The translations under genes were made by a program, and so were the position numbers. From Opitutus sp. GAS368 (GTDB lineage: Bacteria > Verrucomicrobiota > Verrucomicrobiia > Opitutales > Opitutaceae): 64,000 nt of DNA. The notes under the pieces were generated by a model. It saw only the letters and a program-made list of their open reading frames with translations, ran no database searches and was not told the DNA's origin. The stretch is taken from NCBI RefSeq assembly GCF_900104925.1, contig NZ_LT629735.1, forward strand, positions 2,512,291 through 2,576,290. Reading direction: 5' to 3'. Below are positions 11,775 to 64,000 of the stretch, one piece after another; the first letter of the stretch is position 1, and each line of letters opens with the position of its first letter.

Positions 11775-11855
11775 GTAGGGCGCGGACTCCGCTCCGCGCC
11801 TTCCGTCAGGACATCGCAGCCCGCGCGCGGCGGGCAGCGGAGTGCCCGCCCTACC
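11775..11855. repeat. GTAGGG-type palindromic element (A family variant)
   Basis: Element bounded by GTAGGGCG and CGCCCTACC, containing the words GCGGACTCCGCTCCGCGCC and GGCAGCGGAGTGCCCGCCC. It fills the space between two convergent genes. Its right end supplies the TAG stop (11851-11853, read on the minus strand) of the threonine dehydratase gene. Related copies are at 14160, 14629 and 60736. Confidence 0.75.
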
Positions 11856-12807
11856 TTTTCAGCCACGGCAGCGACTCGAGGTCGACGTTGCCGCCGGTGA
11901 GGATGAGGCCGACGTTCTGGCCGGCGAAGACAAACTTGCGCTCGAGCAGCGCGGCGTAGGGCACGGCGGCGGACGGTTCGATGACCAGGTGGAGCTTCTC
12001 CCACAGCTCGCGCATGGCGGCGACGATGCCCGCCTCGGACACCGTCACGATGTCGTCCACGTATTGCCGGATGATCGGGAGATTGACCTCGCCGGTGCAG
12101 TTGGTGCGTAGGCCGTCGGCGATGGTGGCCGGCGTGGGGATGGCAATGCGCTGCCCGGCGCGGAACGACTGGGCGACGTCGTCGGCGAGCGCCGGCTCGA
12201 CGCCGATGACCCTGATGCCCGGCTTGAGCAGCTTGGCCGCGAGGGCGGTGCCGCAAAGCAGGCCGCCGCCGCCGACCGGGCAAAGGACGAAGTCGAGATC
12301 GGGGACATCCTCCAGCAACTCAATCGTGGCCGTGCCCTGGCCGGCGATGACGCGGAGATCGTCGAACGGGTGCACGAGGGTCGCGCCGGTTTCCGCGGCG
12401 AGTTTGGCGCAGGCCGCCTCGCGGGCGTTCAGGCCGGGTTCGCAGAAGGTGATCCGGCCGCCGAAGCTGGCGACGTTGCGCACCTTGGACTGCGGGGAGC
12501 CGGCGGGCATGACGATGTGGGCCGGGATGCCGCGCAGCCGGGCGGCGCGGGCGAGGGCGGCCGCATGGTTGCCCGAGGAGTGCGTGACGACGCCGCGGGC
12601 GGCCTCGGCGTCGGTCAACGAGAAGACGGCGTTGCACGCGCCGCGCGACTTGAACGCGCCCGCGGCCTGAAGGTTCTCGCACTTGAAGCCCAGCCGGGCC
12701 CCGCGGGCGTCGTCGAGCGCCTCGTTGGTGAGGACGGGCGTCCGCTTGATGTGGGGGCGGATGCGCTCGTGGGCGGCGCGGAGGGTGGCGAGGTCGAGGG
12801 AGGACAT
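11851..12807 (-). CDS. Threonine/serine dehydratase, PLP fold type II
   Basis: PLP enzyme of 318 residues, probably a catabolic or biosynthetic threonine dehydratase (threonine to 2-oxobutyrate and ammonia) or a serine racemase relative. The PLP lysine lies in AAGAFKSRGACNA, the substrate loop in SSGNHAAALA, and the cofactor-phosphate loop in VGGGGLLCG. There is no C-terminal ACT regulatory domain, so it resembles the short, non-allosteric form. The frame runs 15 codons further upstream, but the ATG at 12807 (MSSLDLATL) is the likely start because the extension lies in an inverted-repeat element. The stop codon is supplied by the neighbouring palindromic element. Confidence 0.88.
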   Translation of the reverse strand: MSSLDLATLRAAHERIRPHIKRTPVLTNEALDDARGARLGFKCENLQAAGAFKSRGACNAVFSLTDAEAARGVVTHSSGNHAAALARAARLRGIPAHIVMPAGSPQSKVRNVASFGGRITFCEPGLNAREAACAKLAAETGATLVHPFDDLRVIAGQGTATIELLEDVPDLDFVLCPVGGGGLLCGTALAAKLLKPGIRVIGVEPALADDVAQSFRAGQRIAIPTPATIADGLRTNCTGEVNLPIIRQYVDDIVTVSEAGIVAAMRELWEKLHLVIEPSAAVPYAALLERKFVFAGQNVGLILTGGNVDLESLPWLKR

Positions 12808-12828
12808 AGATGACTCAGAAGAGGAATT

Positions 12829-12906
12829 AACCACGAAGCACACGAAACACACGAAAAAGAAATCACCGACCCGGTAGCTTTAGTGTATTTCGTGTGTTTC
12901 GTGGTG
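12829..12906. repeat. Inverted repeat of CACGAAACACACGAAA type
   Basis: Left arm 12829-12857 (ACCACGAAGCACACGAAACA and on) and right arm 12885-12906 (TTTCGTGTGTTTCGTGGT) are complementary. They separate the divergent dehydratase and VOC genes. The AT-rich, low-complexity arms differ from the GC-rich coding DNA around them. The element lies where both promoters should be. Confidence 0.75.
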
Positions 12907-12957
12907 ACTCTCCGGGAAGGGGTTTGATTTTAAAAGATGCGGAGCTAACCTTCGCGC

Positions 12958-13347
12958 ATGACCGTCAAAAAGCTTCTCCACACCCGGATGCGGGTAAACG
13001 ACATCGAGCGCACGGTGAAATTCTACGAGCAGGCTCTCGGACTGAAAGTGTCGCGGCGGCACACGTCGCCCCGCGGGGCGCAACTGGTGTTTCTGGCGAC
13101 GCCAAACAGCGCCGAGGAAATCGAGATCTGCCAGATGCCGGCCGGCAAATCACCCCCGGTGACGGTGCAGCCGGACCTGATGCACCTCGCCTTTGAGGTG
13201 GACGACATGACGGCGTTCGTCGCCGCGCTCGAGCAAAAGGGCTTCAAGCTCAGCGACGGTCCGAGCGGCGGCAGCACAGGCAATGTGATCGCCTTCATCG
13301 ACGCCCCCGAGGGCTACGAGGTGGAGCTGATCCAGAGGGCGAAGTGA
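12958..13347 (+). CDS. VOC/glyoxalase I-like protein
   Basis: Small cytoplasmic protein of 129 residues with the vicinal-oxygen-chelate fold: two beta-alpha-beta-beta-beta units, beginning LLHTRMRVNDIERTVKFYEQ and again HLAFEVDDMTAFVAAL. Candidate metal ligands are the two His residues at these positions and the Glu in GYEVELIQ. The arrangement resembles lactoylglutathione lyase, which would detoxify methylglyoxal, but many VOC proteins have other substrates. A single gene bounded by repeats on both sides. Confidence 0.85.
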   Translation: MTVKKLLHTRMRVNDIERTVKFYEQALGLKVSRRHTSPRGAQLVFLATPNSAEEIEICQMPAGKSPPVTVQPDLMHLAFEVDDMTAFVAALEQKGFKLSDGPSGGSTGNVIAFIDAPEGYEVELIQRAK

Positions 13348-13360
13348 GCTGTTGCTTTCT

Positions 13361-13410
13361 GTAGGAGCCTGCTTGCAGGCGATTCGAGTCGCTTGTAAAC
13401 AAGCTCCTAC
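13361..13410. repeat. GTAGGAGCCTGC palindromic element
   Basis: Inverted repeat bounded by GTAGGAGC and GCTCCTAC, with inner words CTGCTTGCAGG and CTTGTAAACAAG. It starts 13 nt after the VOC stop and ends on the base before the ATG at 13411. A related hairpin (GAGCCTGC/GCAGGCTC) occurs at 63812-63832. Confidence 0.75.
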
Positions 13411-14163
13411 ATGACTGCGGGTAACCTTGGGACTGAAGTCGGAGACCGTCCGGGAAATCGCTGGGCGGACGCCTGGCCCGACGCGCTGGCCTTCGCCGCG
13501 GGGCTGGGCATGGCGTGGTATTTCAAATGGGAGACACGCGACCTCGTGTGGAGTCTCTGGCTTTCGAGCCTGGTCGTCGGCTATGCGATGATCGTGTGGG
13601 ACATCTTCAGCCCGGGGATGCTCCTTGTGACCAAGGTGTGGGGCGACCGGGCGATGCTTTCCCCCGAGCCCAAGGGGCCGGCCATCGCCGGCGGCGCGGT
13701 GCTGTTGGTGGGCGGGCTCTTCATGCTCGCGTTTTTTACCGTGCACTTTGGCGGGTTTCATTTCGTGCACTCGGTTTTCCTCAACGTGTTCTTCCCGCTG
13801 GGGCCGGTCAAAAACAGCTGGCCCAACGCCGCGCTCTACCTGCAGGTGCTGCGCGACTACTGGCCTTTCGTGCTGGTGGCGGCAGTGGCCGAGCGGAAGG
13901 CCTTCCGGCTCGCCCCGGCAGAACCGGCCGGGCCGGAGGACACCTCGGTCACGGCGGCGGCGATCGCGGCGCGCAAGGCCCGGAATGCCCAGGCGGCGTT
14001 CGCGAGCGGCGGCCTGATGGCGCCGTATAAGAATGTGGTGCGGCTCCACTGCCTGATTTTCTTCTTTGCCGCCGCGCATTTCGCCAAGCTGGACAACTTC
14101 CTGGTCTACGCCGTCGTCTATGCGGTGTATTTCTTCCCGTGGCGGCTGCTGAAGAAAGGGTAG
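13411..14163 (+). CDS. Multi-spanning membrane protein, DUF6498-like
   Basis: Predicted inner-membrane protein of 250 residues with about six hydrophobic segments. The segment FFTVHFGGFHFVHSVFLNVF is characteristic and resembles the DUF6498 family; function is unknown. A polar, Ala-rich loop (about residues 165-205) separates the last two spans. The ATG follows directly after a palindromic element, with no visible Shine-Dalgarno sequence, so the start may be further in. Its TAG stop (14161-14163) lies inside the GTAGGG end of the next repeat. Confidence 0.7.
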   Translation: MTAGNLGTEVGDRPGNRWADAWPDALAFAAGLGMAWYFKWETRDLVWSLWLSSLVVGYAMIVWDIFSPGMLLVTKVWGDRAMLSPEPKGPAIAGGAVLLVGGLFMLAFFTVHFGGFHFVHSVFLNVFFPLGPVKNSWPNAALYLQVLRDYWPFVLVAAVAERKAFRLAPAEPAGPEDTSVTAAAIAARKARNAQAAFASGGLMAPYKNVVRLHCLIFFFAAAHFAKLDNFLVYAVVYAVYFFPWRLLKKG

Positions 14164-14217
14164 GGCGGTGAGTCCCTTCACCGCTGGATTGGCGCGGAGC
14201 GGAGCCCGCGCCCTACC
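14160..14217. repeat. A-family palindromic element, copy 1
   Basis: 58-nt element bounded by GTAGGGCGGTGAGTCCC and GCGCCCTACC, with the inner hairpin GGTGAGTCCCTTCACC. It nearly matches the copies at 14629-14686 and 60736-60793. It provides the TAG stop of the upstream membrane-protein gene and reaches the end of the convergent OGG gene. Confidence 0.85.
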
Positions 14218-15184
14218 GCCCGCCGTGGCGGCGTTCCCACGCGAACAGGTATTGCTGGGCCAGCCCGGCGAGCGGGCCGAAGTGGGCGCGGCCGAAGTGC
14301 GCCACCGGCGCGGGCTTCCAGCCCTCGAGACCATAGCGGCGGGCGAGTGATTTCAGCACCCACGTGTCCACGGGAAAAGCCTCGAGCCGGCCGGCGCCGA
14401 AAAGCAGGACGCAATCGGCGACCTTTTCGCCCACGCCGGGCAGCTCGAGCAGGCGGGTCTTGGCCGCCGGGTAGGGCAGGTGCTCGGTCTCCTCCAGCCA
14501 GCCCGGCCGCGCGGCGATGAACTTCGCCGTGCCGTGGATGTATCTGGCGCGGAAACCGAGCAGGCAGGCGCGGAGTTCCTTTTCGGGAACGGCGGCGAGT
14601 TCGGCCCAGGTCGGCAGGCGGTGGAACGGTAGGGCGGTGAGTCCCTTCGCCGCCGGTTCGGCGCGGAACGGAGTCCGCGCCCTACCGATTTCGGCACCGT
14701 GTCGTTCCGCCAGCAGCGCACACATCTGTTTGATCTGGACGATCTGTTTGGTCGCGCTGCAAAGGAAGCCGAGCAGGGTTTCGCCGAAGGGCTGGCGCAG
14801 GATCCGCAGGCCGGGGAAAGCGGCGAGGCATTGCGCGAGATGGGCGTCGCTGCGCCACGGGAGCGCATCGATGAGCGCGGCCCAGTCGCGGTCGAGTCCG
14901 AGGTAGCGGGGCAGGGCGGAAGCGACGACGGCACGCAACGCCGTGGGCGCGCGCCACTCAAGGGAGTCGTCACGCAGGCGGAGCTGGGCGACGCAACCGG
15001 CCCAGGTGCCGGTCCAGACACGGTGGTCGCTGATTTCCATATCAACGACAGGCGTCGGTGTGGAAACCGACGCCCACCTAAAGCTTTGTCCACCATCCAG
15101 CGTCTCGGCGAGGACGTCCGGCGTCAGACGGAGCGCGAGCGGCTGCCACTCAGACCACGGGACTTGCCTGCCAATGCGTGTCAT
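14213..15184 (-). CDS. 8-oxoguanine DNA glycosylase/AP lyase, OGG1 type, carrying repeat insertions
   Basis: Base-excision repair enzyme of 323 residues that would remove 8-oxoguanine from DNA. The N-terminal domain has LDGGQSFRW, typical of OGG. The helix-hairpin-helix and active site are intact: LPGVGEKVADCVLLF carries the Schiff-base Lys (as in human OGG1 GVGTKVADC) and FPVDTWV the catalytic Asp. Two palindromic elements lie inside the frame without breaking it: one encodes about residues 36-54 (STPTPVVDMEISDHRVW), the other about 167-185 (IGRARTPFRAEPAAKGL). I chose the ATG at 15184, which itself lies in a third repeat; upstream codons are pure repeat. Whether the enlarged protein is active is unknown. 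Confidence 0.85.
   Translation of the reverse strand: MTRIGRQVPWSEWQPLALRLTPDVLAETLDGGQSFRWASVSTPTPVVDMEISDHRVWTGTWAGCVAQLRLRDDSLEWRAPTALRAVVASALPRYLGLDRDWAALIDALPWRSDAHLAQCLAAFPGLRILRQPFGETLLGFLCSATKQIVQIKQMCALLAERHGAEIGRARTPFRAEPAAKGLTALPFHRLPTWAELAAVPEKELRACLLGFRARYIHGTAKFIAARPGWLEETEHLPYPAAKTRLLELPGVGEKVADCVLLFGAGRLEAFPVDTWVLKSLARRYGLEGWKPAPVAHFGRAHFGPLAGLAQQYLFAWERRHGGR
14629..14686. repeat. A-family palindromic element, copy 2, inside the OGG gene
   Basis: Same 58-nt unit as at 14160 (GTAGGGCGGTGAGTCCC ... GCGCCCTACC), here in the coding region of the OGG gene between the KQMCALLAERHG and LPTWAEL segments. The reading frame passes through without a stop. Confidence 0.85.
15023..15078. 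repeat. C-family element, copy 1, inside the OGG gene
   Basis: Two linked palindromes: GTGGTCGCTGATTTCCATAT and GGCGTCGGTGTGGAAACC..GACGCCCACC. The same pair occurs in reverse orientation at 43044-43100, and its first half at 21257-21281. This copy lies in frame within the OGG coding sequence. Confidence 0.8.
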
Positions 15185-15254
15185 TCTGAGCGAAGCGAAG
15201 AATCCATTCTGCCGGCGTCGATCCAACTGGATTCCTCGCTTCGCTCAGAATGAC
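15180..15254. repeat. F-family inverted repeat (GTCATTCTGAGCGAAGCGA)
   Basis: Near-perfect inverted repeat: left arm GTCATTCTGAGCGAAGCGAA from 15180 and right arm TTCGCTTCGCTCAGAATGAC ending at 15254 (allowing one step). A half copy lies at 15746-15772. It separates the OGG gene from the secreted-protein gene and supplies the ATG chosen for OGG. Confidence 0.8.
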
Positions 15255-15262
15255 AGAAGGGG

Positions 15263-15739: not shown

Positions 15740-15745
15740 GCGGAT

Positions 15746-15846
15746 GGATTCTTCGCTGCGCTCAGAATGACAAGCAAGTGCGGACTACGCTGCGTAGGGG
15801 CGTGGCTTGACCACGCCCGGGCGCCGACAAGCGGTGTCCCCACACC
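15746..15846. repeat. F half-element followed by B-family element
   Basis: 15746-15772 repeats one arm of the F element (ATTCTTCGCTGCGCTCAGAATGACA). 15794 onward is a B-family unit, GTAGGGGCGTGGCTTGACCACGCCCGGGCGCCG, whose right end has decayed (GTGTCCCCACACC). The better-preserved B copy is at 21282-21331. Together they fill the space before the end of the OppA-like gene. Confidence 0.75.
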
Positions 15847-15848
15847 GG

Positions 15849-17465: not shown

Positions 17466-17573
17466 GACGGGGAGTTAAACGGCAATTTTACGGTGGGCAA
17501 GGGAAGCGCGGCATATTTCTGTGTCCATGCCCTAATAAACCCCGCCATGATGCGTCTCTGAGGAGCAGGTCTC

Positions 17574-18147: not shown

Positions 18148-19692
18148 ATGAACCAAAACCAGATTTCCCCCGACGACCCGCGTCTGACGCTCTATGCTCT
18201 CGATGAGATGGAGCAGGGCGAACGCGCACAGTTCGAGAAGCTGCTGGAGCAGGATGCCGCCGCCCGGCAGGCCGTCGCGGAGATCCGCGCCACGGTTGCG
18301 ACTGTCACCGCCGCGCTGGAACAGGAACCGGCGGAGGCGGCACCGAAGCCGGCCGGCAAGATGCTGCGTTTCCCGCAGCTTTATTTCATGATCAGCGGGC
18401 TCGCCGCGGCGTGCTTCGCGCTCATCTTCGCGGTCTGGCAGTCCGGCCATCAGGACAAGCAGCCGATGCAGCTCATCGAGGTGCCGCTGGCGGCCGCCAA
18501 GGAAGCCGGGACCTTGCCGGCCGCTCCCGCTCCCATCCCGGTCGTGGCCATGGGCCGGGCCGACGAGGCCCCCGTGCCCCAGGAGCCCGCGGTCGCACTT
18601 GATAAATTCGCGGTCGCCGAAACCCGCGCCAGGGTCTCGGCGGATTTTGCGGCCCAGTTCGGCGGTAAAAACGAAGCCGAGCGGTCGGCCATGGCAACGA
18701 TGCAAAAAGCCCGGGTGGCGGCTCCGTCGCCGGCCATGGCCTCTACCGGGGCCGTGAAGAAAACCGAGAGCGACTCCAACACCGCGCCCTACCGCGCCCG
18801 GAAGGACAACGATTTCCTGCGTGTGGCCGACCAGCCGCTCTCCACCTTCCCGGTGAACGTTGGCACGGCCTCCTACGCGAACGTGCAGCGTTTCCTCGCG
18901 CAGAAGCAGCGCCCGCCGGCCGACGTCGTGCACATCGAGGAGCTCGTGAACTATTTTCCCTATCACTACGCGCCACCGACGGACAACGTTCCGTTTGCCG
19001 CCAGCCTGGAGGTGGCCGGCGCGCCGTGGGCGCCCGAACACCGTCTGGTGCGCATCGGCTTGAAAGGCCGCGAAGCCGGCGGCACGCTCGTGACCATCGC
19101 CAAGGACGTGAAGATCCAGGTCGAGTTCAACCCCGCCCGGGTGGCGGCCTACCGTCTCATCGGCTATGAGAACCGGCGGCTGGGCACGGAGGATTTCCAC
19201 AACGACAAGGTGGACGCGGGCGAGATCGACGCCGGCCACACCGTGACCGCGCTCTACGAGGTCGTGCCGGCCGGCACAGCACTGCCGGAAACCGGCGGCA
19301 AGGTGGACGACCTCAAGTATCAGCGCGTCGCCCCCGCTGGGGCGACGGCGACCTCGCCGTCGAAGGACCGCGGCGAGGTCACCGCGGCTCCACTCAATGC
19401 CGAGATGCTCACGGTGAAGGTCGCCTACAAGGAGCCGACCGGTGACGTCAGCAGCACGCTCGAGTTCCCGTTGACCGACGCCGGCGCCCGCTTCGAGGAC
19501 GCCAGCCCGGACTTCAAGTTCGCCGCGGCGGTCGCGGGCTTCGGCATGGTGCTGCGCGACTCCCCGGACAAGGGCCGGCTGACGCTCGCCGAGATTTCGG
19601 AGTGGGGCCGCGCCGGGCTCGACCAGGACGCCGGCGGCTACCGCGCGGCGTTCCTCACGCTGGTGGGCGAGGCCGACAGCCTGTTGCGGTAG
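18148..19692 (+). CDS. YfbK-like protein with anti-sigma-like N-terminus, lacking its vWA domain
   Basis: 514 residues. Residues 1-60 (DPRLTLYALDEMEQGERAQF...) look like an anti-sigma cytoplasmic domain, followed by a membrane span at about 74-95 (LYFMISGLAAACFALIFAVW). From about 228 (DQPLSTFPVNVGTASYANVQ through HIEELVNYFPY) comes the N-terminal YfbK family domain, and from about 313 (AGGTLVTIAKDVKIQVEFNP through HTVTALYEVVPAG) the C-terminal family domain. In normal members a vWA domain of roughly 200 residues lies between GLKGRE and AGGTLVT; here they are joined directly and in frame. A repeat at 19336-19394 adds a foreign AGATATSPSKDRGEVTAAP stretch. The TAG stop comes from a GTAGGGG repeat. 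Role: probably regulator of the adjacent sigma factor (inferred). Confidence 0.82.
   Translation: MNQNQISPDDPRLTLYALDEMEQGERAQFEKLLEQDAAARQAVAEIRATVATVTAALEQEPAEAAPKPAGKMLRFPQLYFMISGLAAACFALIFAVWQSGHQDKQPMQLIEVPLAAAKEAGTLPAAPAPIPVVAMGRADEAPVPQEPAVALDKFAVAETRARVSADFAAQFGGKNEAERSAMATMQKARVAAPSPAMASTGAVKKTESDSNTAPYRARKDNDFLRVADQPLSTFPVNVGTASYANVQRFLAQKQRPPADVVHIEELVNYFPYHYAPPTDNVPFAASLEVAGAPWAPEHRLVRIGLKGREAGGTLVTIAKDVKIQVEFNPARVAAYRLIGYENRRLGTEDFHNDKVDAGEIDAGHTVTALYEVVPAGTALPETGGKVDDLKYQRVAPAGATATSPSKDRGEVTAAPLNAEMLTVKVAYKEPTGDVSSTLEFPLTDAGARFEDASPDFKFAAAVAGFGMVLRDSPDKGRLTLAEISEWGRAGLDQDAGGYRAAFLTLVGEADSLLR
19336..19394. repeat. D-family-like repeat inside the YfbK-like gene
   Basis: Contains GGGGCGACGGCGACCTCGCC and CCGCGGCGAGGTCACCGCGG with complementary arms. 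It resembles the intergenic D elements at 22806, 37555 and 59138. It lies in frame and encodes an insertion just before the AEMLTVKVAYKEPTG segment. Confidence 0.6.
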
Positions 19693-19742
19693 GGGCCTTG
19701 CCCTCAAGCGCCCTTGGGCCGTTGGGGGCAACGGCCCCTACC
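19689..19742. repeat. GTAGGGGCC palindromic element
   Basis: Unit bounded by GTAGGGGCCTTGCCC and GGGGGCAACGGCCCCTACC, able to form one long hairpin. The TAG at 19690-19692 is the stop codon of the YfbK-like gene. A related half (GGGTTGAGGGCAACCGCCCC/TACC) lies at 60924-60948 beside the pnp gene. Confidence 0.8.
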
Positions 19743-20311: not shown

Positions 20312-20362
20312 CTGTAGCGGCGCTCTATGAGAGCTGTCGGCGGTCACAGACCGCCGCTACAG
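20312..20362. repeat. CTGTAGCGGCG palindromic element
   Basis: Inverted repeat with outer arms CTGTAGCGGCG and CGCCGCTACAG and the inner words GAGAGCTGTCGGCGGTCACA. It fills the gap between the YhcH-like gene (stop 20309-20311) and the rlmJ start at 20383. Confidence 0.75.
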
Positions 20363-21256: not shown

Positions 21257-21331
21257 GTGGTCGCCGATTTCCATATCGGCGGTAGGGGCGTGGCTTGACC
21301 ACGCCCGGACGCCGTCAAGCGGCGCCCCTAC
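21257..21331. repeat. C half-element fused to B-family element
   Basis: 21257-21281 is the GTCGCCGATTTCCATATCGGC half of the C family; 21282-21331 is a full B unit, GTAGGGGCGTGGCTTGACCA through GCGGCGCCCCTAC. The two families share the junction GGCGGTAGGGG, which suggests that elements land next to each other. Confidence 0.85.
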
Positions 21332-22799: not shown

Positions 22800-22805
22800 A
22801 CCAAC

Positions 22806-22860
22806 CACGGCGAGGTCGCCGTGGCTCCAGCCAATGGAGCGCGGGCGACCCGCCCGCGGG
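22806..22860. repeat. D-family element, copy 1
   Basis: CACGGCGAGGTCGCCGTGGC, then TCCAGCCAATGGA, then GCGGGCGACCCGCCCGCGG: three nested or tandem palindromes. A near-identical copy is at 59138-59192 and a related one at 37555-37608. It lies between the convergent MazG-like and DUF5069 genes. Confidence 0.85.
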
Positions 22861-29428: not shown

Positions 29429-29438
29429 TTCCCGAATG

Positions 29439-29523
29439 CAGGGTCGCCGCTTGCCGGCGGACCGTTTCCCTATGGCCTGGCGACAAGCACCGGCCCTACA
29501 TTTAGAAAAAGGGTCGCCCTACC
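29439..29523. repeat. N-family palindromic element, copy 1
   Basis: GGGTCGCCGCTTGCCGGCGG ACC-type sequence followed by a decayed half and GGGTCGCCCTACC. The word TCGCCGCTTGCCGGCGGACC is identical to one arm of the element at the window end (63943-63962). Its right end supplies the TAG stop of the BatD-like gene (29519-29521 on the minus strand). Confidence 0.8.
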
Positions 29524-32191
29524 GATACAGCCGGATCAGGTCCTCGCTGCGCACCCAGCCGGCCTGGCCGCCGGCGAAACTGAGCTTTGTCCAGCCGAGG
29601 AAGGTCTTCTCGGCCACGGCAATGGAGCCGGCGGAAAGCGGGGACATCTTCTGGGTCGTGTCGGCCTCGGTCGGGATGCTGCGCAGCGTGGAGGCCTTCC
29701 ACACGATCACCGCGTCGGGCTGCGCGAGCGGCCCGTAGGTGTGCAGGCTGAGTGTGGCCGCGGCGGCAAGCAGGATGGCGAGGAGAATGGTGACGAGCGC
29801 GGTCGGCCGGGCCCAGCCGCCGATGCGGCCGTAGCCCTTCAGGAGCAGCACGACGAGCGCGACCGCGATGAGCAGGGCGGCGCCCACGAGGGCAAGCTGC
29901 CATTCGCCCGGGCTCGCCCAGCGCGCGAGCTCATGACGGCCATCGCCGCGGGAAAGCTCGACGAGCTCGGGCGGAGCCATGCCCGAACGCTGCAGCCCGA
30001 GCGCAAGATCCCAACGGGTCGCGTCGGAACGGGCGTTGAGCAGGAACGCCCCGGTCCAGTAACCGGTCGCCTCGGCCCAGCGATCCTGCTGGCCGAGGGC
30101 GAGGCCCAGGTTGTGACGGACCGTCCAGTCGCTCGGCGCCGTGGCGAGAGCCTGGCGCCAGTTGGTTTCGGCGACGGCAAAGTCGCCGCGCTTGTAGGCC
30201 TCACCAGCGACATCGGCGTGCGCCGCAACCGGTGCGAGCAGCACGGCGAGCGTGAAAAGGAAGGGCAGCAGGTTGCGGCCGGCAAAGAGCGAGGATGGCG
30301 GCCAGCCGGGCACCTTGACGCCCGCGAGCGCAGCGTCGGCGCGCACCTGCCAGTCCTTGGGCAGGGTGTTCTCCCGGCTGTGCAGGGCGCGATCGGCCTC
30401 GGACCAGAGCTTCGCCCAGGCGGAGGCGGCATCCGGGGCGTGACGGCCGACGCAGGCGTGAACCAGCGGGGTGCCGGGCGCGGCGTGCGGAACTTCCCAG
30501 AGCTTGGTCGTCTCCATCTGCCAGACTTTGAGCCGGGAGATGATCGCCGCGGGTTGAGAGTCGGAGGAACGCAGGGCCGACACCGCCGTGGCGAGGCGGG
30601 CGCGGGCTTCGCGCCGCCGGCGCTGCGGGTCGCGCTCGCGAGAGCGCAGGGCGGCGAGCGCCAGCCAGAGGAGCAGAGGACAGAGGACGGAGGACAGAAG
30701 ACAGGCCCAGACAAGATTGAATGTCACCAAGGGCACGAAACCGGTGCTGCCTGAGGCGATGGGATCGCGCGGCAGGTTTTCGGGTGCGACCGGCGCCACG
30801 GCCGGCGGGAGGACCGGCGGCGCGGGCGTGCTGGACGGGGTGTTGATGGAGAACTGCACGGGCGCGCCGGAACCGGCCGGCGCCTGCACCGGAGTGGAGC
30901 CGGCGGTGATGGTCACCATGACGGGCTCGCTGGCGATGGTCTTGTAGGTGCCGGACTTGGTGTCGAAGTAGGTGAAGCGCACCGGCGCGAGCCGGTAGGT
31001 GCCGGGCTTGGTCGGCACGAGCACCACGTCCTCGGTCAGCGTGCCCTCGAACAGCGTGCCGTCCTTCATCGCGCGCTTGGACTTCGGCTGCACGACCTGG
31101 AAGTCATTCGACACCTCGCGCTCGGGCAGGCCGGTGACGTCCGGCCAGTTGCCCGTGCCGGCCAGCTCCAGGGTCCAGGTGACGGGTTCGCCGACGGCGG
31201 CGGTGAGGGGCACGACCTTGGAGGTGAAGCTGAACTCGCCGACGGCGCCGGCGAAGGCGGCGGGCGGCGTCGGCAGCGGCTTGATGGTCAGGGTCAGGGA
31301 TTCCGACTCGATGGCGCGCTGCTCGACGGTGGGCTGGGAGAAAAGCCCGAAACCCGCGGTGCCGACCATCAGGTTCACCATCTGGCTGGCCGGCTTGAAG
31401 GTGTAATTGCCCGGCTGCTTGGCGTAGGCGCGGGTGGACTGCTGCAGGACGACATAGCGCTCGCCGCGGACGAGGGCCTCGTTGAGCTCGGGCTTGCTCC
31501 AGTCCTCCGTCACGAGCGGGGTGGACGGCCAGTCGACATTGGTGGCGATCGAGTGGTAGTAGCGCCGCACGATGTTGAGGTTGTAAGTGACGGGGAAGAC
31601 CTCGCCGGCCCAGAAGGAATCCTTGTTGGCGGTGACCTTCGCGACGGCGACGTCGTTCACGGCGAGGCCGGAGTTGCCCACGGTGGCGTCGCCCACGGTG
31701 AACGTGGCGGACTTGACCGTGATCGGGCCCTTGTCGGTTTTAACCTCGAAGGCCGGGATGCTGATGGTGCTGCGCTTGCCCGGCCGCACGGGGAAAACGA
31801 GGGAGAAGCGGCGGGTCACGGTCATGTTGACCATGTTCATCTCGCTGCTCTGCGAAGGCCGGCCGATCTGGAGGCCGTCGATCTTGGGCAGGGCCGGGTC
31901 GCCGTCGGGCTCGCAATTTTCAAACACCAGGGCGAGGTCGCTGACCTGGTTGAAACCCAGCTGGCCGCCGGGTGGCTCCCAGCGTACGGTCTGGGCGCGC
32001 ATGAGGGTGGGCAACAGCAGGGCGAACAGGAATAGGCCGAGGCCCAACGCGCTCAACACACCCCGGCGCTGCGCGCCACCCCTCTTGATAGAGGGGATCT
32101 GCATGGCCGTGGTTCGGAAATCCCCTCTGGAGAGGGGTGTCCGAAGGGTGGTGTGGGTAAGGAAGGGCATGAGGCGGGAAAGCATGATCAT
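29519..32191 (-). CDS. BatD-BatE fusion: Ig-like BatD with TPR and SH3-like C-terminus
   Basis: 890 residues, last gene of the MoxR/Bat operon. ATG 32191 shares one base with the upstream TGA (TGATG). A hydrophobic export segment lies at about 48-66. Residues 70-490 are the BatD (oxygen-tolerance) domain of repeated beta-sandwiches. Then come a membrane span (about 505-530), a linker, a second hydrophobic stretch, a TPR-like segment (AYKRGDFAVAETNWRQALAT ... RHNLGLALGQQDRWAEATGY) as in BatE, two further spans, and an SH3-like end (WTKLSFAGGQAGWVRSEDLI). Normally BatD and BatE are separate. Repeats provide part of the N-terminus, an internal stretch (LLSSVLCPLL) and the stop codon. Confidence 0.86.
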   Translation of the reverse strand: MIMLSRLMPFLTHTTLRTPLSRGDFRTTAMQIPSIKRGGAQRRGVLSALGLGLFLFALLLPTLMRAQTVRWEPPGGQLGFNQVSDLALVFENCEPDGDPALPKIDGLQIGRPSQSSEMNMVNMTVTRRFSLVFPVRPGKRSTISIPAFEVKTDKGPITVKSATFTVGDATVGNSGLAVNDVAVAKVTANKDSFWAGEVFPVTYNLNIVRRYYHSIATNVDWPSTPLVTEDWSKPELNEALVRGERYVVLQQSTRAYAKQPGNYTFKPASQMVNLMVGTAGFGLFSQPTVEQRAIESESLTLTIKPLPTPPAAFAGAVGEFSFTSKVVPLTAAVGEPVTWTLELAGTGNWPDVTGLPEREVSNDFQVVQPKSKRAMKDGTLFEGTLTEDVVLVPTKPGTYRLAPVRFTYFDTKSGTYKTIASEPVMVTITAGSTPVQAPAGSGAPVQFSINTPSSTPAPPVLPPAVAPVAPENLPRDPIASGSTGFVPLVTFNLVWACLLSSVLCPLLLWLALAALRSRERDPQRRRREARARLATAVSALRSSDSQPAAIISRLKVWQMETTKLWEVPHAAPGTPLVHACVGRHAPDAASAWAKLWSEADRALHSRENTLPKDWQVRADAALAGVKVPGWPPSSLFAGRNLLPFLFTLAVLLAPVAAHADVAGEAYKRGDFAVAETNWRQALATAPSDWTVRHNLGLALGQQDRWAEATGYWTGAFLLNARSDATRWDLALGLQRSGMAPPELVELSRGDGRHELARWASPGEWQLALVGAALLIAVALVVLLLKGYGRIGGWARPTALVTILLAILLAAAATLSLHTYGPLAQPDAVIVWKASTLRSIPTEADTTQKMSPLSAGSIAVAEKTFLGWTKLSFAGGQAGWVRSEDLIRLYR
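30670..30704. repeat. G-family purine-rich repeat, copy 2, inside batD
   Basis: GAGCAGAGGACAGAGGACGG followed by AGGACAGAAGACAG, within the BatD-like coding sequence, where it encodes part of a membrane span (LLSSVLCPLL on the minus strand). Nearly the same words form the intergenic copy at 18112. Confidence 0.7.
32056..32156. repeat. Palindromic element in the N-terminal coding region of batD
   Basis: Outer arms CACACCCCGGCGC near the left and GGGTGTCCGAAGGGTGGTGTG at the right surround two inner hairpins (CCCCTCTTGATAGAGGGG and CCCCTCTGGAGAGGGG, the latter with a 2-nt loop). The frame stays open across it and encodes LRTPLSRGDFRTTAMQIPSI before the export segment. Confidence 0.65.
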
Positions 32192-34008
32192 CACCAATTC
32201 TTGCCCGTGGTCTTGGGCTTCTGTTGCGGGCCTTGCATGATTTGCTGGAGTTTGGCGGGCGAATCCTGGTTGCGTACCTGCTCGAGCTTCTGGAGCGGCA
32301 TGGCGAGCTCGGCGTCGATGGGCTCGGCGGGCTGTTTTTCCTGCTGCCCGCCGACCTTCTGCGTGCCGGCGGGCGGGGTGGACGGCTTCGGTTCGGCCTT
32401 CTTCTGGTCCGGCTTGTCCTTCATGTCGCCGAAGGCGTCCTTGTTCTGCTGCTGCGGCTGCTGGTCCTTCTGGTCCTGGCTTTGCTGGTCCTGCTTCTTT
32501 TGATCCTGCTGATCCTTGTTCTGGTCCTGCTTTTGCTGGTCTTTCTGCTGCTGCTTGTCCTGTTGCTGTTGGTCCTTCTTGTCCTGATCTTTCTTATCCT
32601 GTTTCGGCGGCTCCTCCTTTTTTAGCAGCTCCTCCAGCTCCGAGCGCACGCGCGGCCAGTCGGCGGCCTTGGCGTCAAGTTTCTCGCCGGTGTCGACCGC
32701 CGCCAGGGCGTCGCGGATGACCGGCTCGGGCGGTTGCTGCTGGGATGATTTCACGCGCTGGCCGTAGGTGACCGTGGTCTGCGCCAGCTCGGAATATTCC
32801 TTGGCGGTGACGGTGTCCTTGGCGGCGAGCCGGGCCACGGTGGTCGAGAGCGGTTTGGCCAGCGGGTCGCTGGGAGCTTCGCTCTCGGCGCCGCACGCAG
32901 AGGACGGATGACAGAGGACGGAGAACAGGACCAAGGCCGCAACAACGGCGACGGCCTTCCGTCCTCCGTCCTCGGTCTTCGGTCCTCTGGCCTTGCCCAG
33001 GGGCAGCGCCCGCTCGCGCGGGCGGACGGGGAACTCGGCCCAGAAGCTGATGAGCAGGAGGAGCAGGCCGGGGGCGAGGAACCACTGGAAGCGCTCGATG
33101 CGGCGCGCGGTGTTCTTCTCCGCAAACTCGCCTTTGCGACCGGCCTCGACGGTTTTCCGGAGCAACGCCGGCAGGTCCACCCACGAGCTGGCATCGGCGT
33201 AGGCGCCGCCCGTCACCTGCGCGAGCTCCTGCAGGGTCGAGCTGTTGAGGCGCGACATGACAACTGCGCCGCGCTCGTCCTTCACCAGGCCGCCGCCGGG
33301 CTCGGGGATGAACGACCCCTGGGCCGTGCCGACGCCGAGGCCGATGACGCGGATGCCTTTGGTCTTGAGCGAACCGGTCAGGCCCTGCCATTCATCCTCC
33401 GTGCTTTCGCCGTCGCTGAGGATGATCAGGTAACGGTCGGCGGTGGAGGTGCCGAAGGCCTGCATGGAGGTCTCGAGCAGCGCCTTGTAGTTCGTGCCGC
33501 CCTCGGGAAGGTAATCTGTGTTCAGGACGGGCAGGAACTCCCGCAGCACCTCGTAATCGGAGCTGAGCGGGCTCTGCAGGAAGGCGGTGCCGGAGAACAG
33601 CACGAGGCCGACGCGCTCGCCCTTCAGACCGTCGAGCAGGGAGGTGATGAGCAGCTTGCTGCGGTCGAGGCGCGAGGGCTTGACGTCCTGCGCCAGCATG
33701 GAGCGCGACAGGTCCATGGCGATGATCACCTCGCGCGACTGGTCGAACACCTGCTCCTCGATCACGCCCCATTGCGGGCGGGCGAGGGCGATGAGGCAAA
33801 GCGCCAGGCCGAACCAGAGCCAGATCCGCGGCCGGTTCTCGGCGGTGGTATGCTTGGCCCCCAACGAGACGTCGAAGGCCCCGGCCCAGGCGCGGGCGAT
33901 CTTCGGCCAGTTCGCCACCGTGCGCGCGGAGTGGCGCATCAGCTCCCACGAGAAGAGCAGCACGAGCGGCACGAGGAGCCAGAGGAGATGCGGGGATTGG
34001 AAGCTCAT
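32191..34008 (-). CDS. BatB-BatC-like vWA membrane protein with Gln/Lys/Asp-rich tail
   Basis: 605 residues from ATG 34008, overlapping the batA stop by 4 nt. Two N-terminal membrane spans flank a vWA domain (MIDAS motif AMDLSRSMLAQD near residues 92-103, later LSDGESTED). A third span follows near 325. After a second hydrophobic segment (about 370-385) comes a helical region and a low-complexity stretch of about 65 residues made almost only of Q, K and D (for example KKDQDKKDQQQQDKQQQKDQ). This tail resembles BatC. Bat proteins work with MoxR; their precise job is unsettled (oxygen tolerance or envelope complex assembly). Repeats of G type lie in the linker (32898-32996). Confidence 0.86.
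   Translation of the reverse strand: MSFQSPHLLWLLVPLVLLFSWELMRHSARTVANWPKIARAWAGAFDVSLGAKHTTAENRPRIWLWFGLALCLIALARPQWGVIEEQVFDQSREVIIAMDLSRSMLAQDVKPSRLDRSKLLITSLLDGLKGERVGLVLFSGTAFLQSPLSSDYEVLREFLPVLNTDYLPEGGTNYKALLETSMQAFGTSTADRYLIILSDGESTEDEWQGLTGSLKTKGIRVIGLGVGTAQGSFIPEPGGGLVKDERGAVVMSRLNSSTLQELAQVTGGAYADASSWVDLPALLRKTVEAGRKGEFAEKNTARRIERFQWFLAPGLLLLLISFWAEFPVRPRERALPLGKARGPKTEDGGRKAVAVVAALVLFSVLCHPSSACGAESEAPSDPLAKPLSTTVARLAAKDTVTAKEYSELAQTTVTYGQRVKSSQQQPPEPVIRDALAAVDTGEKLDAKAADWPRVRSELEELLKKEEPPKQDKKDQDKKDQQQQDKQQQKDQQKQDQNKDQQDQKKQDQQSQDQKDQQPQQQNKDAFGDMKDKPDQKKAEPKPSTPPAGTQKVGGQQEKQPAEPIDAELAMPLQKLEQVRNQDSPAKLQQIMQGPQQKPKTTGKNW
32424..32628. repeat. Low-complexity Gln/Lys/Asp codon tract
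   Basis: Degenerate CTGCTG/TTGCTGGTCCTTCTG-type tandem words on the plus strand, the reverse of CAG/AAG/GAC codons of the BatB/C-like tail. Likely slippage-prone; length may differ between strains. Confidence 0.75.
32898..32996. repeat. G-family repeats, copies 3 and 4, in inverted orientation inside batB
   Basis: 32898-32930 reads CAGAGGACGGATGACAGAGG ACGG-type; 32957-32992 reads CCTTCCGTCCTCCGTCCTCG GTCTTCGGTCC-type, its reverse complement in kind. Both lie in the BatB/C-like coding sequence and encode VLFSVLCHPSS and GPKTEDGGRKA. Confidence 0.7.
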
Positions 34009-37433: not shown

Positions 37434-37662
37434 GGGGTGAGTGAAAAGTGATGTGTGGCGAGTGACAAGTGATGAGTAGGGAGCGCAATGAGACTGCCGA
37501 AGGGAGACAGAGTTTCAGAAGATGGCCACGAAAAGGCGCCAAAAGGCACTAAAATGGAGCCGGGGCGACCCCGCCCCGGAAGAACGCGGCGTGGTCGCCG
37601 CGTCTCCAGCGGCGAGCGGCTTTTTCGTGTCTTTTTGTGCCTCTTTGTGGCTAAACCAGAGC
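37434..37662. repeat. Nested repeat region between MoxR and the RF-like gene
   Basis: Three layers are seen. 37438-37480 holds GTGAAAAGTGATGTG/GTGACAAGTGATGAG words. 37520-37557 (GGCCACGAAAAGGCGCCAAA) pairs roughly with 37617-37652 (TTTTTCGTGTCTTTTTGTGC CTCTTTGTGGC). Between these arms lies a D-family copy (37555-37608: GGGGCGACCCCGCCCCGG, then GCGGCGTGGTCGCCGCG, TCTCCA). The frame of the next gene is open through part of it. Promoters of both divergent genes must lie here. Confidence 0.75.
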
Positions 37663-38073: not shown

Positions 38074-38386
38074 GCTGCAGGAGGGGCTTTATGCCCCGAT
38101 GCGACCCACGGCAGGGTTTAACCACTCGGGAGTGTTTTCAAAGCTCGGAAGGGGGACCACTAAAAGGATTCCGCCAACGGCGGAATCTACTTTCACTGCT
38201 CCGGCTAATCGCCTCCGCCGCCAGGCTCAGGGGGCGGCTGATCGCCGCCCTCTCTGCCCGCGATTAGCGGGCCCCCGAAACCCACCGCGCAGGCGATCAG
38301 CCGGAGCGGTTTCCGTGGATTTCATCATTGGTGAAATCTCATTAGTGGTCCTTTTCGGTGGTTTGAAGACACACCCTGGTGGTTCA
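38074..38386. repeat. 313-nt gap with M half-element and large nested palindrome
   Basis: No gene is seen. 38078-38104 (GCAGGAGGGGCTTTATGCCC CGATG) is a half copy of the element at 55486. 38154-38358 is one nested palindrome: outer arms GGACCACTAAAAGG and ATTAGTGGTCCTTTT; next arms GCTCCGGCTAATCGCC (from 38198) and GGCGATCAGCCGGAGC (to 38311); inside GATTCCGCCAACGGCGGAATC and GGCGGCTGATCGCCGCC. Confidence 0.7.
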
Positions 38387-43043: not shown

Positions 43044-43128
43044 GGTGGGCGTCGGTTTCCACACCGACGCCTGTCGCCGATATGGAAATCGGCGACCACC
43101 TTCGGCGGGGTCAGCGACCCCGCCCTAC
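43044..43128. repeat. C-family element, copy 2, plus a GGCGGGGTC hairpin
   Basis: 43044-43100: GGTGGGCGTCGGTTTCCACA CCGACGCC and GTCGCCGATATGGAAATCGG CGACCACC-type, inverse of the OGG copy. 43104-43124: hairpin GGCGGGGTC/GACCCCGCC, then CCTACC, whose CTA is the TAG stop of the sensor-kinase gene. It lies between convergent genes. Confidence 0.85.
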
Positions 43129-55485: not shown

Positions 55486-55560
55486 GTAGGAGGGGCTTTA
55501 CGCCCCGATGGATGACAGCCCGTTTCGGGAAAATCGAGGCATAAAGCCCCTCCTGCAGTT
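55486..55560. repeat. M-family palindromic element
   Basis: Arms CTGTAGGAGGGGCTTTACGC CCCGATG (from 55486) and CGAGGCATAAAGCCCCTCCT GCAG (to 55559), spacer with GCCCGTTTCGGG. A half copy is at 38078. It lies between the deaminase and adenosine-deaminase genes, ending 2 nt before the latter's ATG, so its AGGAGG-like arm would pair with the ribosome-binding site region. Confidence 0.85.
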
Positions 55561-55561
55561 T

Positions 55562-58149: not shown

Positions 58150-58203
58150 CAATGCCGTGTTTTTGGCCTCGCCCATACTTTTGGTAATAGCTGGAATCCG
58201 CCC
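58150..58203. promoter_or_regulatory. Possible LysR binding dyad in the divergent promoter region
   Basis: The 102-nt gap between the SnoaL-like and LysR genes contains the imperfect dyad ATACTTTTGGTAAT (near 58175-58188), of a size fitting a LysR T-N11-A box. Weak evidence. Confidence 0.3.
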
Positions 58204-59109: not shown

Positions 59110-59137
59110 AACACCAACTCGCCGGAAATCCCAATCC

Positions 59138-59192
59138 CACGGCGTGGTCGCCGTGGCTCCAGGTCTTGGAGCGCGGGCGACCTCGCCCGCGG
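59138..59192. repeat. D-family element, copy 2
   Basis: CACGGCGTGGTCGCCGTGGC, TCCAGGTCTTGGA, GCGGGCGACCTCGCCCGCGG: same three palindromes as at 22806. It follows the LysR gene. Confidence 0.85.
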
Positions 59193-59303
59193 AATGGTAT
59201 CAGGTCGGCAGGCCGGACTGACTGGTCGTCTTGAGCGCGGCGAGACGGAGAGGGTGGTTCGGGAGAGTTGAGCCGGGGACATGGGGCAATGACGAGTCGA
59301 AGG

Positions 59304-59337
59304 TAAGGCGCGTTGAGGTCAACGCGCTCCACCTCAA
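59304..59337. repeat. E-family element, copy 1
   Basis: GCGCGTTGAGGTCAACGCGC followed by TCCACCTCAAG. The TCA at 59334-59336 is the TGA stop of surE on the minus strand. Related copies: 60815-60872 and 63272-63340. Confidence 0.8.
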
Positions 59338-60110: not shown

Positions 60111-60177
60111 GGCGAGCAGGCCTTCACGGAATACGGGGCGGCGGCGGAGGGGAAGCGAGAAAACCCGGGCCGACCGG

Positions 60178-60672: not shown

Positions 60673-60735
60673 GCGAGCAAATTAGTCCCGGGGCCGGCGA
60701 CTGCAATCAAGCAGAAAAGAAAAAACGCGACTGGG

Positions 60736-60793
60736 GTAGGGCGGTGAGTCCCTTCACCGCCGCGAAGGCGCGGAACGGAGTCCGCGCCCTACC
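60736..60793. repeat. A-family palindromic element, copy 3
   Basis: GTAGGGCGGTGAGTCCCTTC ACCGCC and GCGCGGAACGGAGTCCGCGC CCTACC: nearly the same 58-nt unit as at 14160 and 14629, 46 kb away. Confidence 0.87.
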
Positions 60794-60814
60794 GGGCATC
60801 GTTGCCCGCTAGGG

Positions 60815-60872
60815 GGTGGAGCGGCTTGACCTCAAGACGCTCAAGCAAGCGCACTGGGGTCAGCGAACTCCA
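60815..60872. repeat. E-family element, copy 2
   Basis: GTGGAGCGGCTTGACCTCAA GACGC and GCGCACTGGGGTCAGCGAAC TCCA: same outline as the copy at 63272, partly decayed. Confidence 0.75.
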
Positions 60873-60878
60873 ACTATG

Positions 60879-60907
60879 AAAAAAGCCGCGACTTGCGTCG
60901 CGGCTTT
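60879..60907 (-). terminator. Terminator of pnp
   Basis: Perfect 8-bp stem GCCGCGAC (60885-60892) / GTCGCGGC (60897-60904) with loop TTGC, preceded on the plus strand by six A residues (60879-60884), i.e. a T run after the stem on the minus strand. Confidence 0.88.
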
Positions 60908-60950
60908 GAAGGTGGGCGAAGGGGGGTTGAGGGCAACCGCCCCTACCGGG

Positions 60951-63143: not shown

Positions 63144-63271
63144 TTTCGGATTCGGTTCGGATGATGCGTGGCGCCGGCCGGATTGCCGGAACGTCACGCG
63201 GGGTTCGGATGATGGCCGTTTTCTTGGACCCTTTGAATCAGCTCCCGGGAAATTTCGGATTACGGCTCCTG

Positions 63272-63340
63272 GGGTGGAGCGCGTTGACCTCAACGCGCTT
63301 TCCGGTTCTTAAAACGCGCCGGGGTCAGCGCGTTCCACCT
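63272..63340. repeat. E-family element, copy 3, between rpsO and pnp
   Basis: GGTGGAGCGCGTTGACCTCA ACGCGC and GCGCCGGGGTCAGCGCGTTC CACC, outer arms complementary. It lies in the 293-nt space between rpsO and pnp and would be part of any joint transcript. Confidence 0.8.
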
Positions 63341-63396
63341 TGATCGGAGAAGTAAGCGGAAATGTCCCTGGGTTCTGGTTCGTGGGGGCTTGAACA

Positions 63397-63424
63397 AAAG
63401 GCGGCCCGTCGGTGGGCCGCCTTT
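63397..63424 (-). terminator. Terminator after rpsO
   Basis: Stem GGCGGCCC (63400-63407) / GGGCCGCC (63414-63421), loop GTCGGT, with AAAA before and TTT after, so it can act on both strands. It lies 13 nt after the rpsO stop and may reduce read-through into pnp. Confidence 0.88.
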
Positions 63425-63436
63425 CGTGAAAACGGG

Positions 63437-63700
63437 TTACTTGCGGAGACTCAGCTTCTGCAGCAGGTCGTTGTATTTGGCGAGGTCCTCGCTCTTGACG
63501 TAATCAAGGAGCTTGCGACGACGACTGGCCATTTGGAGGAGGCCGCGGCGGCTGTGGAAGTCCTTGCGATGCGTGCGCAGGTGCTCGGTCAAGTGATTGA
63601 TCCGGGCGGTGAGCAGCGCGATCTGGACGTCGCTGGAGCCGGTGTCCTTCTCGTGGATTTTATACTGGGCGATGACTTCTGACTTAACGGGTTGTGACAT
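63437..63700 (-). CDS. rpsO: 30S ribosomal protein S15
   Basis: 87 residues, four-helix protein that binds 16S r[43 protein letters not shown] is the conserved S15 core, with VGKRRRLL-equivalent [16 protein letters not shown]. Followed by pnp. Confidence 0.97.
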
Positions 63701-63731
63701 GGTTTAGGTTGTTGATGACGCGGTCTTTGTT

Positions 63732-63832
63732 GGAGCTTTCGCTCCGTGCCGCCCGCTTTTGGAGGGCCGGCGGCACCGTTAGTGTCCGGTTGCCCGGACT
63801 GACCGTGGTGGGAGCCTGCGACCAGCAGGCTC
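63732..63832 (-). promoter_or_regulatory. Structured leader upstream of rpsO
   Basis: Four consecutive hairpins precede rpsO: GGAGC/GCTCC (63732-63745), GTGCCGCC/GGCGGCAC (63746-63776), GTCCGG/CCGGAC (63784-63799) and GAGCCTGC/GCAGGCTC (63812-63832). S15 commonly represses its own mRNA by binding leader structures. Whether this is such a leader or stacked repeat elements cannot be told; the last hairpin resembles the element at 13361. Confidence 0.45.
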
Positions 63833-63937
63833 TCACTAACGAAGGAGCCATTAACTAAACCGAGGCCCCCTCCTGCAAGCGAAATTTTGCAGAAGCTGAA
63901 GTGTGCCAGTGTGGCGCGGAATCAAGGGTTCCGAGTG

Positions 63938-64000
63938 TAGGGTCGCCGCTTGCCGGCGGACCATCGCGGCTGTAATTCCCGGTCCGCCGGCAAGCGGCGA
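63938..64000. repeat. N-family palindromic element, copy 2
   Basis: Perfect 20-bp inverted repeat: TCGCCGCTTGCCGGCGGACC (63943-63962) and its complement (63981-64000), spacer 18 nt, preceded by GTAGGG. It runs to the window edge. One arm equals that of the copy at 29439. Confidence 0.92.

What the first reader, a model, noticed from the sequence alone, without database searches (positions are those of the whole stretch)
11775..64000. At least a dozen families of dispersed palindromic elements in one 64-kb window
Seen directly: families A (14160, 14629, 60736, variant 11775), B (15794, 21282), C (15023, 21257, 43044), D (22806, 37555, 59138, similar 19336), E (59304, 60815, 63272), F (15180, 15746), G (18112, 30670, 32898, 32957, 35831), M (38078, 55486), N (29439, 63938), plus single palindromes. 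Most have outer arms beginning GTAGGG or GTAGGAG. Different families share the same layout, as if one mechanism spreads unlike sequences. REP/BIME elements moved by RAYT transposases are the nearest known system, but those are usually one or two families per genome.
Basis: partly seen in the sequence, partly recalled or inferred. Interest (0 to 1): 0.78.

Follow-up and report, generated by a model that had tools for sequence, protein, structure and literature searches.

The report
Twelve RAYT genes, many REP families
The scattered palindromes are small hairpin elements (REPs/REPINs) of the kind copied around chromosomes by single-strand transposases (RAYTs); this genome carries about twelve such transposase genes, each bordered by its own hairpin type, which explains why so many unlike families share one layout.

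Summary
Families A, B, C, D, E, M and N are REP hairpins: a foot tetranucleotide (GTAG, GTGG or GGAG), a 5-9 bp stem and a short loop, usually as head-to-head pairs (REPINs). F fits another published superfamily (TGTC/CGTC foot). G is a degenerate 7-bp tandem repeat, not a palindrome. The window lies in a 4.15-Mb single-contig genome with 12 RAYT loci (10 open, 2 broken), each bracketed by its own inverted hairpin type. B, C, M, N and a fifth window hairpin match RAYTs of this genome; A, D and E match RAYT classes seen here or in relatives. Two REPINs lie in frame inside a DNA-glycosylase gene whose relatives have empty sites or other REPs there. Repeat-specific RAYTs are already published. 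What looks new is the number of systems in one genome, a GGAG foot (second most enriched of 256 feet) with its own RAYT clades, and a link between foot and RAYT residues: 14 of 14 GGAG RAYTs lack the histidine H101 that is listed for GTAG contact in E. coli TnpA-REP. A companion rule for GTGG (arginine in beta-1) held in one direction only. New variant of a known kind.

The parts
11775..11854 (.). A variant: head-to-head pair, GTAG-GGCGCGGA[CTCCGC] and GTAG-GGCGGGCA[CTCCGC]
14160..14216 (.). A REPIN: GTAG-[GTCCCT] + GTAG-[CTCCGY-like] heterodimer, intergenic
14629..14685 (.). A REPIN inside the OGG-type DNA glycosylase gene 14213-15226(-), residues 181-200
60736..60792 (.). A REPIN, intergenic
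15794..15843 (.). B: GTAG-GGGCGTGG[CTTGA] plus a degenerate inverted partner
21282..21331 (.). B REPIN: head-to-head GTAG-[CTTGA] pair
15023..15077 (.). C element (GTGG-[TTCCAY]) inside the same glycosylase gene, residues 50-68
21257..21281 (+). C half unit, GTGG-[TTCCAT]
43045..43099 (.). C REPIN, GTGG-[TTCCAC]/[TTCCAT], the same loop pair that flanks the RAYT at genome 2581119
19336..19393 (.). D REPIN inside the YfbK-like ORF 18148-19692(+); right unit GGAG foot, left unit reads GGGG
22805..22858 (.). D REPIN, GGAG-CCACGGCG[ACCT] / GGAG-CGCGGGCG[ACC]
37556..37607 (.). D REPIN, GGAG feet
59137..59191 (.). D REPIN, GGAG feet
59308..59332 (-). E: GTGG-A-GCGCGTTG[ACCT]
60816..60874 (.). E: GTGG-AGCGGCTTG[ACCT]; the same hairpin flanks RAYT L413 of relative G043
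63274..63338 (.). E REPIN, GTGG-AGCGCGTTG[ACCT] / GTGG-AACGCGCTG[ACCC]
38077..38101 (+). M: GCAG-GA-GGGGC[TTTAT]GCCCC-GATG
55486..55556 (.). M REPIN, GTAG-GA-GGGGC[TTTAY]; same hairpin as at the broken RAYT at genome 2237912
29438..29499 (.). N REPIN, foot GCAG at one end, loop CTTG
63938..64000 (.). N REPIN, GTAG-GGTCGCCG[CTTG], cut by the window end
20338..20360 (-). single REP GTAG-CGGCGGTC[TGT], same hairpin type as at the RAYT at genome 672992
43104..43128 (-). single REP GTAG-GGCGGGGTC[GCT]
19716..19741 (-). single REP GTAG-GGGCCGTTG[CCCC]; GTAG-[CCCT] sisters in the 400-kb sample
13361..13410 (.). single GTAG-GA type palindrome
15179..15255 (.). F: TGTC-foot palindrome pair, a different superfamily, not seen at RAYTs here

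Best explanation
The palindromes are REPs, mostly head-to-head pairs (REPINs), of many separate families. Each family is, or was, copied by a cognate RAYT (TnpA-REP, Y1 HUH nuclease). The RAYT binds the single-stranded hairpin by its foot, loop and stem irregularities, cuts beside it and moves it as single-stranded DNA. The shared layout reflects one enzyme class; the unlike sequences reflect about twelve diverged RAYT genes, each bracketed by its own hairpins. Shown: element anatomy, copy spread, RAYT genes and flanks, foot and loop following RAYT phylogeny, compensated stem changes in family B, inserts absent from relatives. Inferred: RAYT activity, binding specificity and single-strand mechanism, by analogy with E. 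coli, S. maltophilia and Marinomonas TnpA-REP.
For: 12 RAYT loci in the genome, 12 of 12 bracketed by inverted repeats or facing hairpins. In 8 the finder called matching hairpins on both sides; in 4 (L040, L045, L086, L087) I read the hairpin from the inverted repeat, and in L045 and L086 it is interrupted by mismatches. NCBIfam REP_Tyr_transpos hits on 4 of 4 proteins tested, 2 above the curated cut-off. Profile hit to solved E. coli TnpA-REP 4ER8, E 8.5e-20. Of 147 RAYTs with full flanks, 122 have an inverted repeat scoring at least 13 across the gene, against 6 of 300 random places of this genome (92 against 0 at 17 or more). On a tree of 161 RAYTs the foot changes 3 times (18-22 in 200 shuffles) and the loop class 21 times (64-76). 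In 400 kb of this genome outside the window GTAG is the most enriched of 256 feet (24 against 1.46 expected), GGAG second (16 against 2.81). In-gene inserts with empty or differently filled sites in relatives.
Against: A, D and E have no RAYT with exactly their foot, loop and stem among the 12 of this genome; their movers may be lost or shared. GTGG was only weakly enriched in the strict foot scan (6 against 3.17; rank 18 of 256), though a looser finder gave 63 against 28 in 464 kb including the window. Stem similarity follows RAYT distance as strongly as loop similarity (Mantel r 0.276 and 0.28), so loop is not the only tracked part. 36 of 167 distinct RAYTs had no inverted repeat by the script, some of them at contig ends and one (L083) with facing but unlike hairpins. 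No transposition was observed. L083 and L043 score below the NCBIfam cut-off (72.1 and 69.8 against 80).
Confidence: 0.93

Rival explanations
1. The hairpins are host regulatory elements (terminators, mRNA stabilisers) kept by selection, and RAYT proximity is incidental.
For: Many lie between genes, as a terminator or stabiliser would (crude gene calls by codon-position G+C).
Against: Inverted copies bracket RAYT genes specifically (122 of 147 against 6 of 300 random places). Feet and loops follow RAYT phylogeny. Copies sit in frame inside a coding region. A later host role is not excluded.
Confidence: 0.04
2. One or a few promiscuous RAYTs move all families, and the other RAYT genes are passengers.
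For: A, D and E lack an exact RAYT here. The GTAG-TCC type RAYT L045 could serve A, and the GGAG RAYT L044 could serve D.
Against: Each of the 12 RAYT loci carries its own hairpin, L040 and L041 sharing one type, and cognates of some orphan hairpins exist in relatives: E with L413, GGAG-GGCCCAGC[TCCA] with L417, CTCCGY with L071 and L073. Loss of the cognate RAYT is a published alternative (PMC3686654, passages).
Confidence: 0.15
3. The families are decayed IS200/IS605 ends (MITE-like) rather than REPs.
For: Two IS200-like transposases with identical proteins exist (L001, L002).
Against: The flanks of L001, the one checked, show no long inverted repeat and only one weak GTAG and one weak GGAG hairpin. 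The families match RAYT flanks instead.
Confidence: 0.02

Closest known systems
GTAG REP families and repeat-specific REPtrons (Di Nocera, De Gregorio, Rocco 2013, PMC3733652; parts 1, 2, 4, 5 of 8 and passages read)
   Same: Foot plus stem-loop, head-to-head dimers, several families in one genome (Opitutus terrae among those named), GTGG variant, in-frame copies inside repair genes, repeat-specific RAYTs in species with several GTAG families.
   Different: The foot degeneracies given in the text (GYAG, GYRG, GTRG, GTMG, GTGG) do not include GGAG. Figures and supplements were not seen, so identity with the GTAG-17/19/20 families of O. terrae could not be tested.
REP classes and RAYT orthogroups (Nunvar, Licha, Schneider 2013, PMC3686654; abstract and passages read)
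   Same: One REP class per RAYT; REP classes left behind after RAYT loss.
   Different: They report two to three RAYTs on average, at most four per genome; here 12 loci.
TnpA-REP subclasses (2018 survey, PMC6006769; sections 10, 13, 14 and passages read)
   Same: REP features follow subclass; W94, Q95, E100, H101 and R104 region tied to GTAG reading; H101 to R already noted in subclasses 2.5 and 2.7; [quoted passage not shown]
   Different: Their automatic search used GT[AG]G feet, so GGAG elements would be missed by it; the H101 change is not linked there to a foot in the text I saw.
TnpA-REP biochemistry (PMC8266576; section 26 and passages read)
   Same: Foot and loop decide cleavage; foot base changes redirect the cut site.
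   Different: Only E. coli, S. maltophilia and Marinomonas enzymes were tested.
CGTC REP superfamily (PMC3733652)
   Same: Family F: CGTC or TGTC foot, AT at the stem start, CC(A) tail, not seen at RAYTs.
   Different: F has an interrupted stem here; published families have 8-9 bp stems and 4-5 base loops.

Membership tests
REP/REPIN (GTAG superfamily) | GTAG/GTGG foot at the base of a short stem-loop | tested here: met
   A, B, C, E, M, N; GTAG top of 256 feet. M and N each also have a copy with foot GCAG.
REP/REPIN (GTAG superfamily) | D family has a GT[AG]G foot | tested here: not met
   7 of 8 D units have GGAG, one reads GGGG. It is built like a REP and GGAG hairpins flank a group of RAYTs, so I call it a variant.
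REP/REPIN (GTAG superfamily) | many dispersed copies, often inverted pairs | tested here: met
   A and B genome-wide, others by sample; not counted genome-wide for C, D, E, M, N
REP/REPIN (GTAG superfamily) | family F belongs | tested here: not met
   TGTC/CGTC foot; its word AGCGAAGCGAA is in none of the other RAYT loci held (a second word, TCATTCTGAG, in one, L117)
REP/REPIN (GTAG superfamily) | family G is palindromic | tested here: not met
   tandem heptamer
RAYT (TnpA-REP) | Y1 HUH motif and similarity to TnpA-REP | tested here: met
   MPDH-x-H motif in the 7 aligned, 4ER8 hit of the profile, NCBIfam hits (2 of 4 above cut-off)
RAYT (TnpA-REP) | gene flanked by inverted REPs | tested here: met
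   12 of 12 in this genome, 8 by the finder and 4 read from inverted repeats
RAYT (TnpA-REP) | cleaves and transfers its REP | not testable with these tools
   needs purified protein

The most novel reading that the evidence does not exclude
RAYTs read the REP foot by a residue code. H101 (E. coli numbering) goes with T at foot base 2; losing it (to R, T or V) goes with a G-second foot (GGAG, GGGG), a REP class I found no description of. In one large clade, beta-1 F-x-T becomes H-x-R together with foot GTGG. Changing these residues would then redirect which hairpins are copied and, by the published foot-guides-cut model, where they insert, explaining how new REP families are born in one genome.
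Probability: 0.4. Interest if true: 0.72.

Novelty: new variant of a known kind. Interest (0 to 1): 0.5.

Why it matters
How RAYTs recognise their REPs, and how new REP families arise, is open: the 2021 study PMC8266576 says that no structural data were available for group 3 enzymes with their REPs. A genome with about a dozen RAYTs of different feet and loops, plus about 180 RAYTs with a readable foot (this genome's and relatives'), turns specificity into a question that site-directed swaps can answer. It also shows that searches limited to GT[AG]G can miss part of the REP world.

Tried and rejected
Pfam Y1_Tnp alone undercounts RAYTs (9 hits, two of them IS200-like); protein and profile searches raised the RAYT loci to 12. 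The first pattern for B was mis-spaced and found 0; corrected. 'Stems vary freely, only loops are conserved' was rejected: Mantel r is equal for both. The beta-1 rule was written down before the first held-out flanks were read. In that set (53 RAYTs, 44 with a foot read by eye) 8 of 8 H-x-R rows had GTGG (L351 and L367 less clearly; L367 from one flank), 33 of 33 GTAG and 2 of 2 GCAG rows had T, and one ambiguous row, L395, has T with a GTGG-or-GGAG foot. In the second set (20 RAYTs, 19 feet read) the rule failed one way: 4 of 5 GTGG-foot RAYTs (L412, L423, L425, L426) have T. So R implies GTGG (19 of 19 over all sets) but GTGG does not require R. The H-x-R rows form one clade (18 rows, 100/97 support, those columns left out), so this is one evolutionary event. 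H101 rule: in training 12 of 12 GGAG lack H and 100 of 101 others keep it (exception L178). First held-out set: no clear GGAG; 44 of 44 read rows keep H, L395 included, which would be a counterexample if its foot is GGAG. Second set: GGAG L416 (T), L417 (V) and GGGG L414 (R) lack H; the 15 GTAG/GTGG rows with that column filled keep it. The H101 table was made before those flanks were read, but no note was written for it. Independent contrasts are too few for significance (1-2 pairs). A plasmid search for an independent GTGG RAYT gave one useless hit. A search for cut-site dinucleotides beside the feet showed only a conserved -1 base (T before 75% of GTAG and 85% of GGAG, G before 97% of GTGG). 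YfbK homologues were fetched but not aligned.
Full report
What is there. The window is bases 2512291-2576290 of a 4,150,783-base single-contig genome; the window has 65.7% G+C. The nearest titled RAYT relatives are Oleiharenicola, Opitutus and other Opitutia genomes, so I infer the Opitutaceae or close to it. A pairs two different hairpins, [GTCCCT] and [CTCCGY]; B has [CTTGA], C [TTCCAY] with foot GTGG, D [ACCT]-like with foot GGAG, E [ACCT] with foot GTGG, M [TTTAY] with a GA spacer, N [CTTG]. Copies of B differ in the stem by compensating changes: 22 copies, counted by me among 30 pattern matches, include GTGG/CCAC, GCCG/CGGC, GTCG/CGAC, GCGG/CCGC and GGCG/CGCC in the same part of the stem.

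More than chance. The window has 41 GTAG/GTGG hairpins against 4-11 in five resamplings. In 20 evenly spaced 20-kb stretches outside the window, all 256 tetranucleotides were compared as feet of perfect hairpins: GTAG 24 against 1.46 expected (rank 1), GGAG 16 against 2.81 (rank 2), GTGG 6 against 3.17 (rank 18). At least two of the 16 GGAG cases do not look like REPs.

The movers. Searches with RAYT proteins and profiles give 12 RAYT loci in this genome: ten open, one with an internal stop, one broken, plus two IS200-like genes with identical proteins. All 12 are bracketed by inverted repeats or facing hairpins, 8 by the finder and 4 read by me: CTTGA at 3921k (B), CTTG at 3169k and 1185k (N), TTCCAY at 2581k (C; 4.8 kb beyond the window), TAT/TGT at 673k (window 20338), TTTAY at 2238k (M, broken gene), and CACCGT, two GTGG-[TCC] types, GTAG-[TCC], GGAG-[YATCA] and a mismatched GTAG hairpin at the rest. 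In 61 genomes of the family, this one included, 44 have a RAYT at E 1e-12; this one has 11 by that cut, second only to 13 in an 8.0-Mb genome.

RAYT and hairpin go together. From 179 loci I took 167 distinct RAYTs; 131 had an inverted repeat across the gene. Of those with 450 bases on both sides, 122 of 147 did, against 6 of 300 random places of this genome. A tree of 161 RAYTs carried hairpin labels on 125. Eleven labels were read by hand, three were corrected and five dropped, leaving 120 loops and 119 feet. The foot changes 3 times (18-22 in 200 shuffles) and the loop class 21 times (64-76). Loop classes were defined by me. Stem similarity follows RAYT distance equally well.

Insertion. The gene at 14213-15226(-), an OGG-type DNA glycosylase, holds an A REPIN at residues 181-200, between the stretches matched by its two Pfam models, and a C element at residues 50-68. 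Of 19 relatives aligned (53 of 61 genomes, this one included, have the gene), L309, L317 and L318 have a short linker without insert, and L307, L308, L310 and L312 hold other REPs in that linker; L308 also has another REP near the C site. The other 12 have linkers of varied length, mostly with no REP called there. Unlike families have thus landed in the same tolerated place.

Foot and residues. In E. coli TnpA-REP the GTAG contacts lie in beta-1, around beta-4 and at the C-terminal end (PMC8266576, section 26), and H101 is named in the passage on residues that interact with GTAG, with the remark that it is sometimes R in subclasses 2.5 and 2.7 (PMC6006769, section 14). I place H101 by the alignment to 4ER8. 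Here it is lost in 12 of 12 GGAG RAYTs and kept in 100 of 101 others. Two more GGAG cases and a GGGG case in a second held-out set of 20 also lack it, and the 15 GTAG/GTGG rows with the column filled keep it. Beta-1 H-x-R marks GTGG RAYTs (10 of 10 training, 8 of 8 and 1 of 1 held out), but four held-out GTGG RAYTs have the usual F-x-T. These are correlations over few evolutionary events and not proof.

What is known. Repeat-specific RAYTs, several families per genome including O. terrae, GTGG feet, in-frame copies and the role of foot and loop are in print (PMC3733652, PMC3686654, PMC6006769, PMC8266576; parts read as listed). Counts per genome that I saw are at most four RAYTs (PMC3686654) and more than five copies of one subclass (PMC6006769); figures and supplements were not seen. 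A search for TnpAREP with GGAG found no paper and one for Opitut with repetitive extragenic palindrom found none; these cover only the held library. So the system is a known kind; the number of systems, the GGAG class and the residue link are the parts that look new.

Noticed in passing
15179-15255, 15746 and 5 places in 400 kb elsewhere: Family F, TGTCATTCTGAGCGAAGCGAAGAATCC, fits the CGTC/TGTC superfamily, for which PMC3733652 found no transposase; its word AGCGAAGCGAA was in none of the other RAYT loci held, a second word in one (L117).
   Followed up: partly
18116, 30676, 32900, 32960, 35833: Family G is a degenerate tandem heptamer GAGGACN in short dispersed arrays, two of them facing each other; origin unexplained.
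   Followed up: partly
L001 and L002 (genome 1734480 and 3396105): Two IS200-like transposase genes with identical proteins, distinct from the RAYTs.
   Followed up: no
L375 and L392: A pair of RAYTs in relatives flanked by hairpins with foot GCAG, a fourth foot type.
   Followed up: no
L045, L112, L069 flanks: Hairpins of these related RAYTs carry a tandem GA/GA mismatch at stem positions 4-5.
   Followed up: no
32437-32633: Long degenerate repeat around CTGCTGGTCCTT inside the ORF 32191-34398(-), probably a low-complexity protein tract.
   Followed up: no
18148-19692: D REPIN inside a YfbK-like protein; homologues fetched but not aligned.
   Followed up: no
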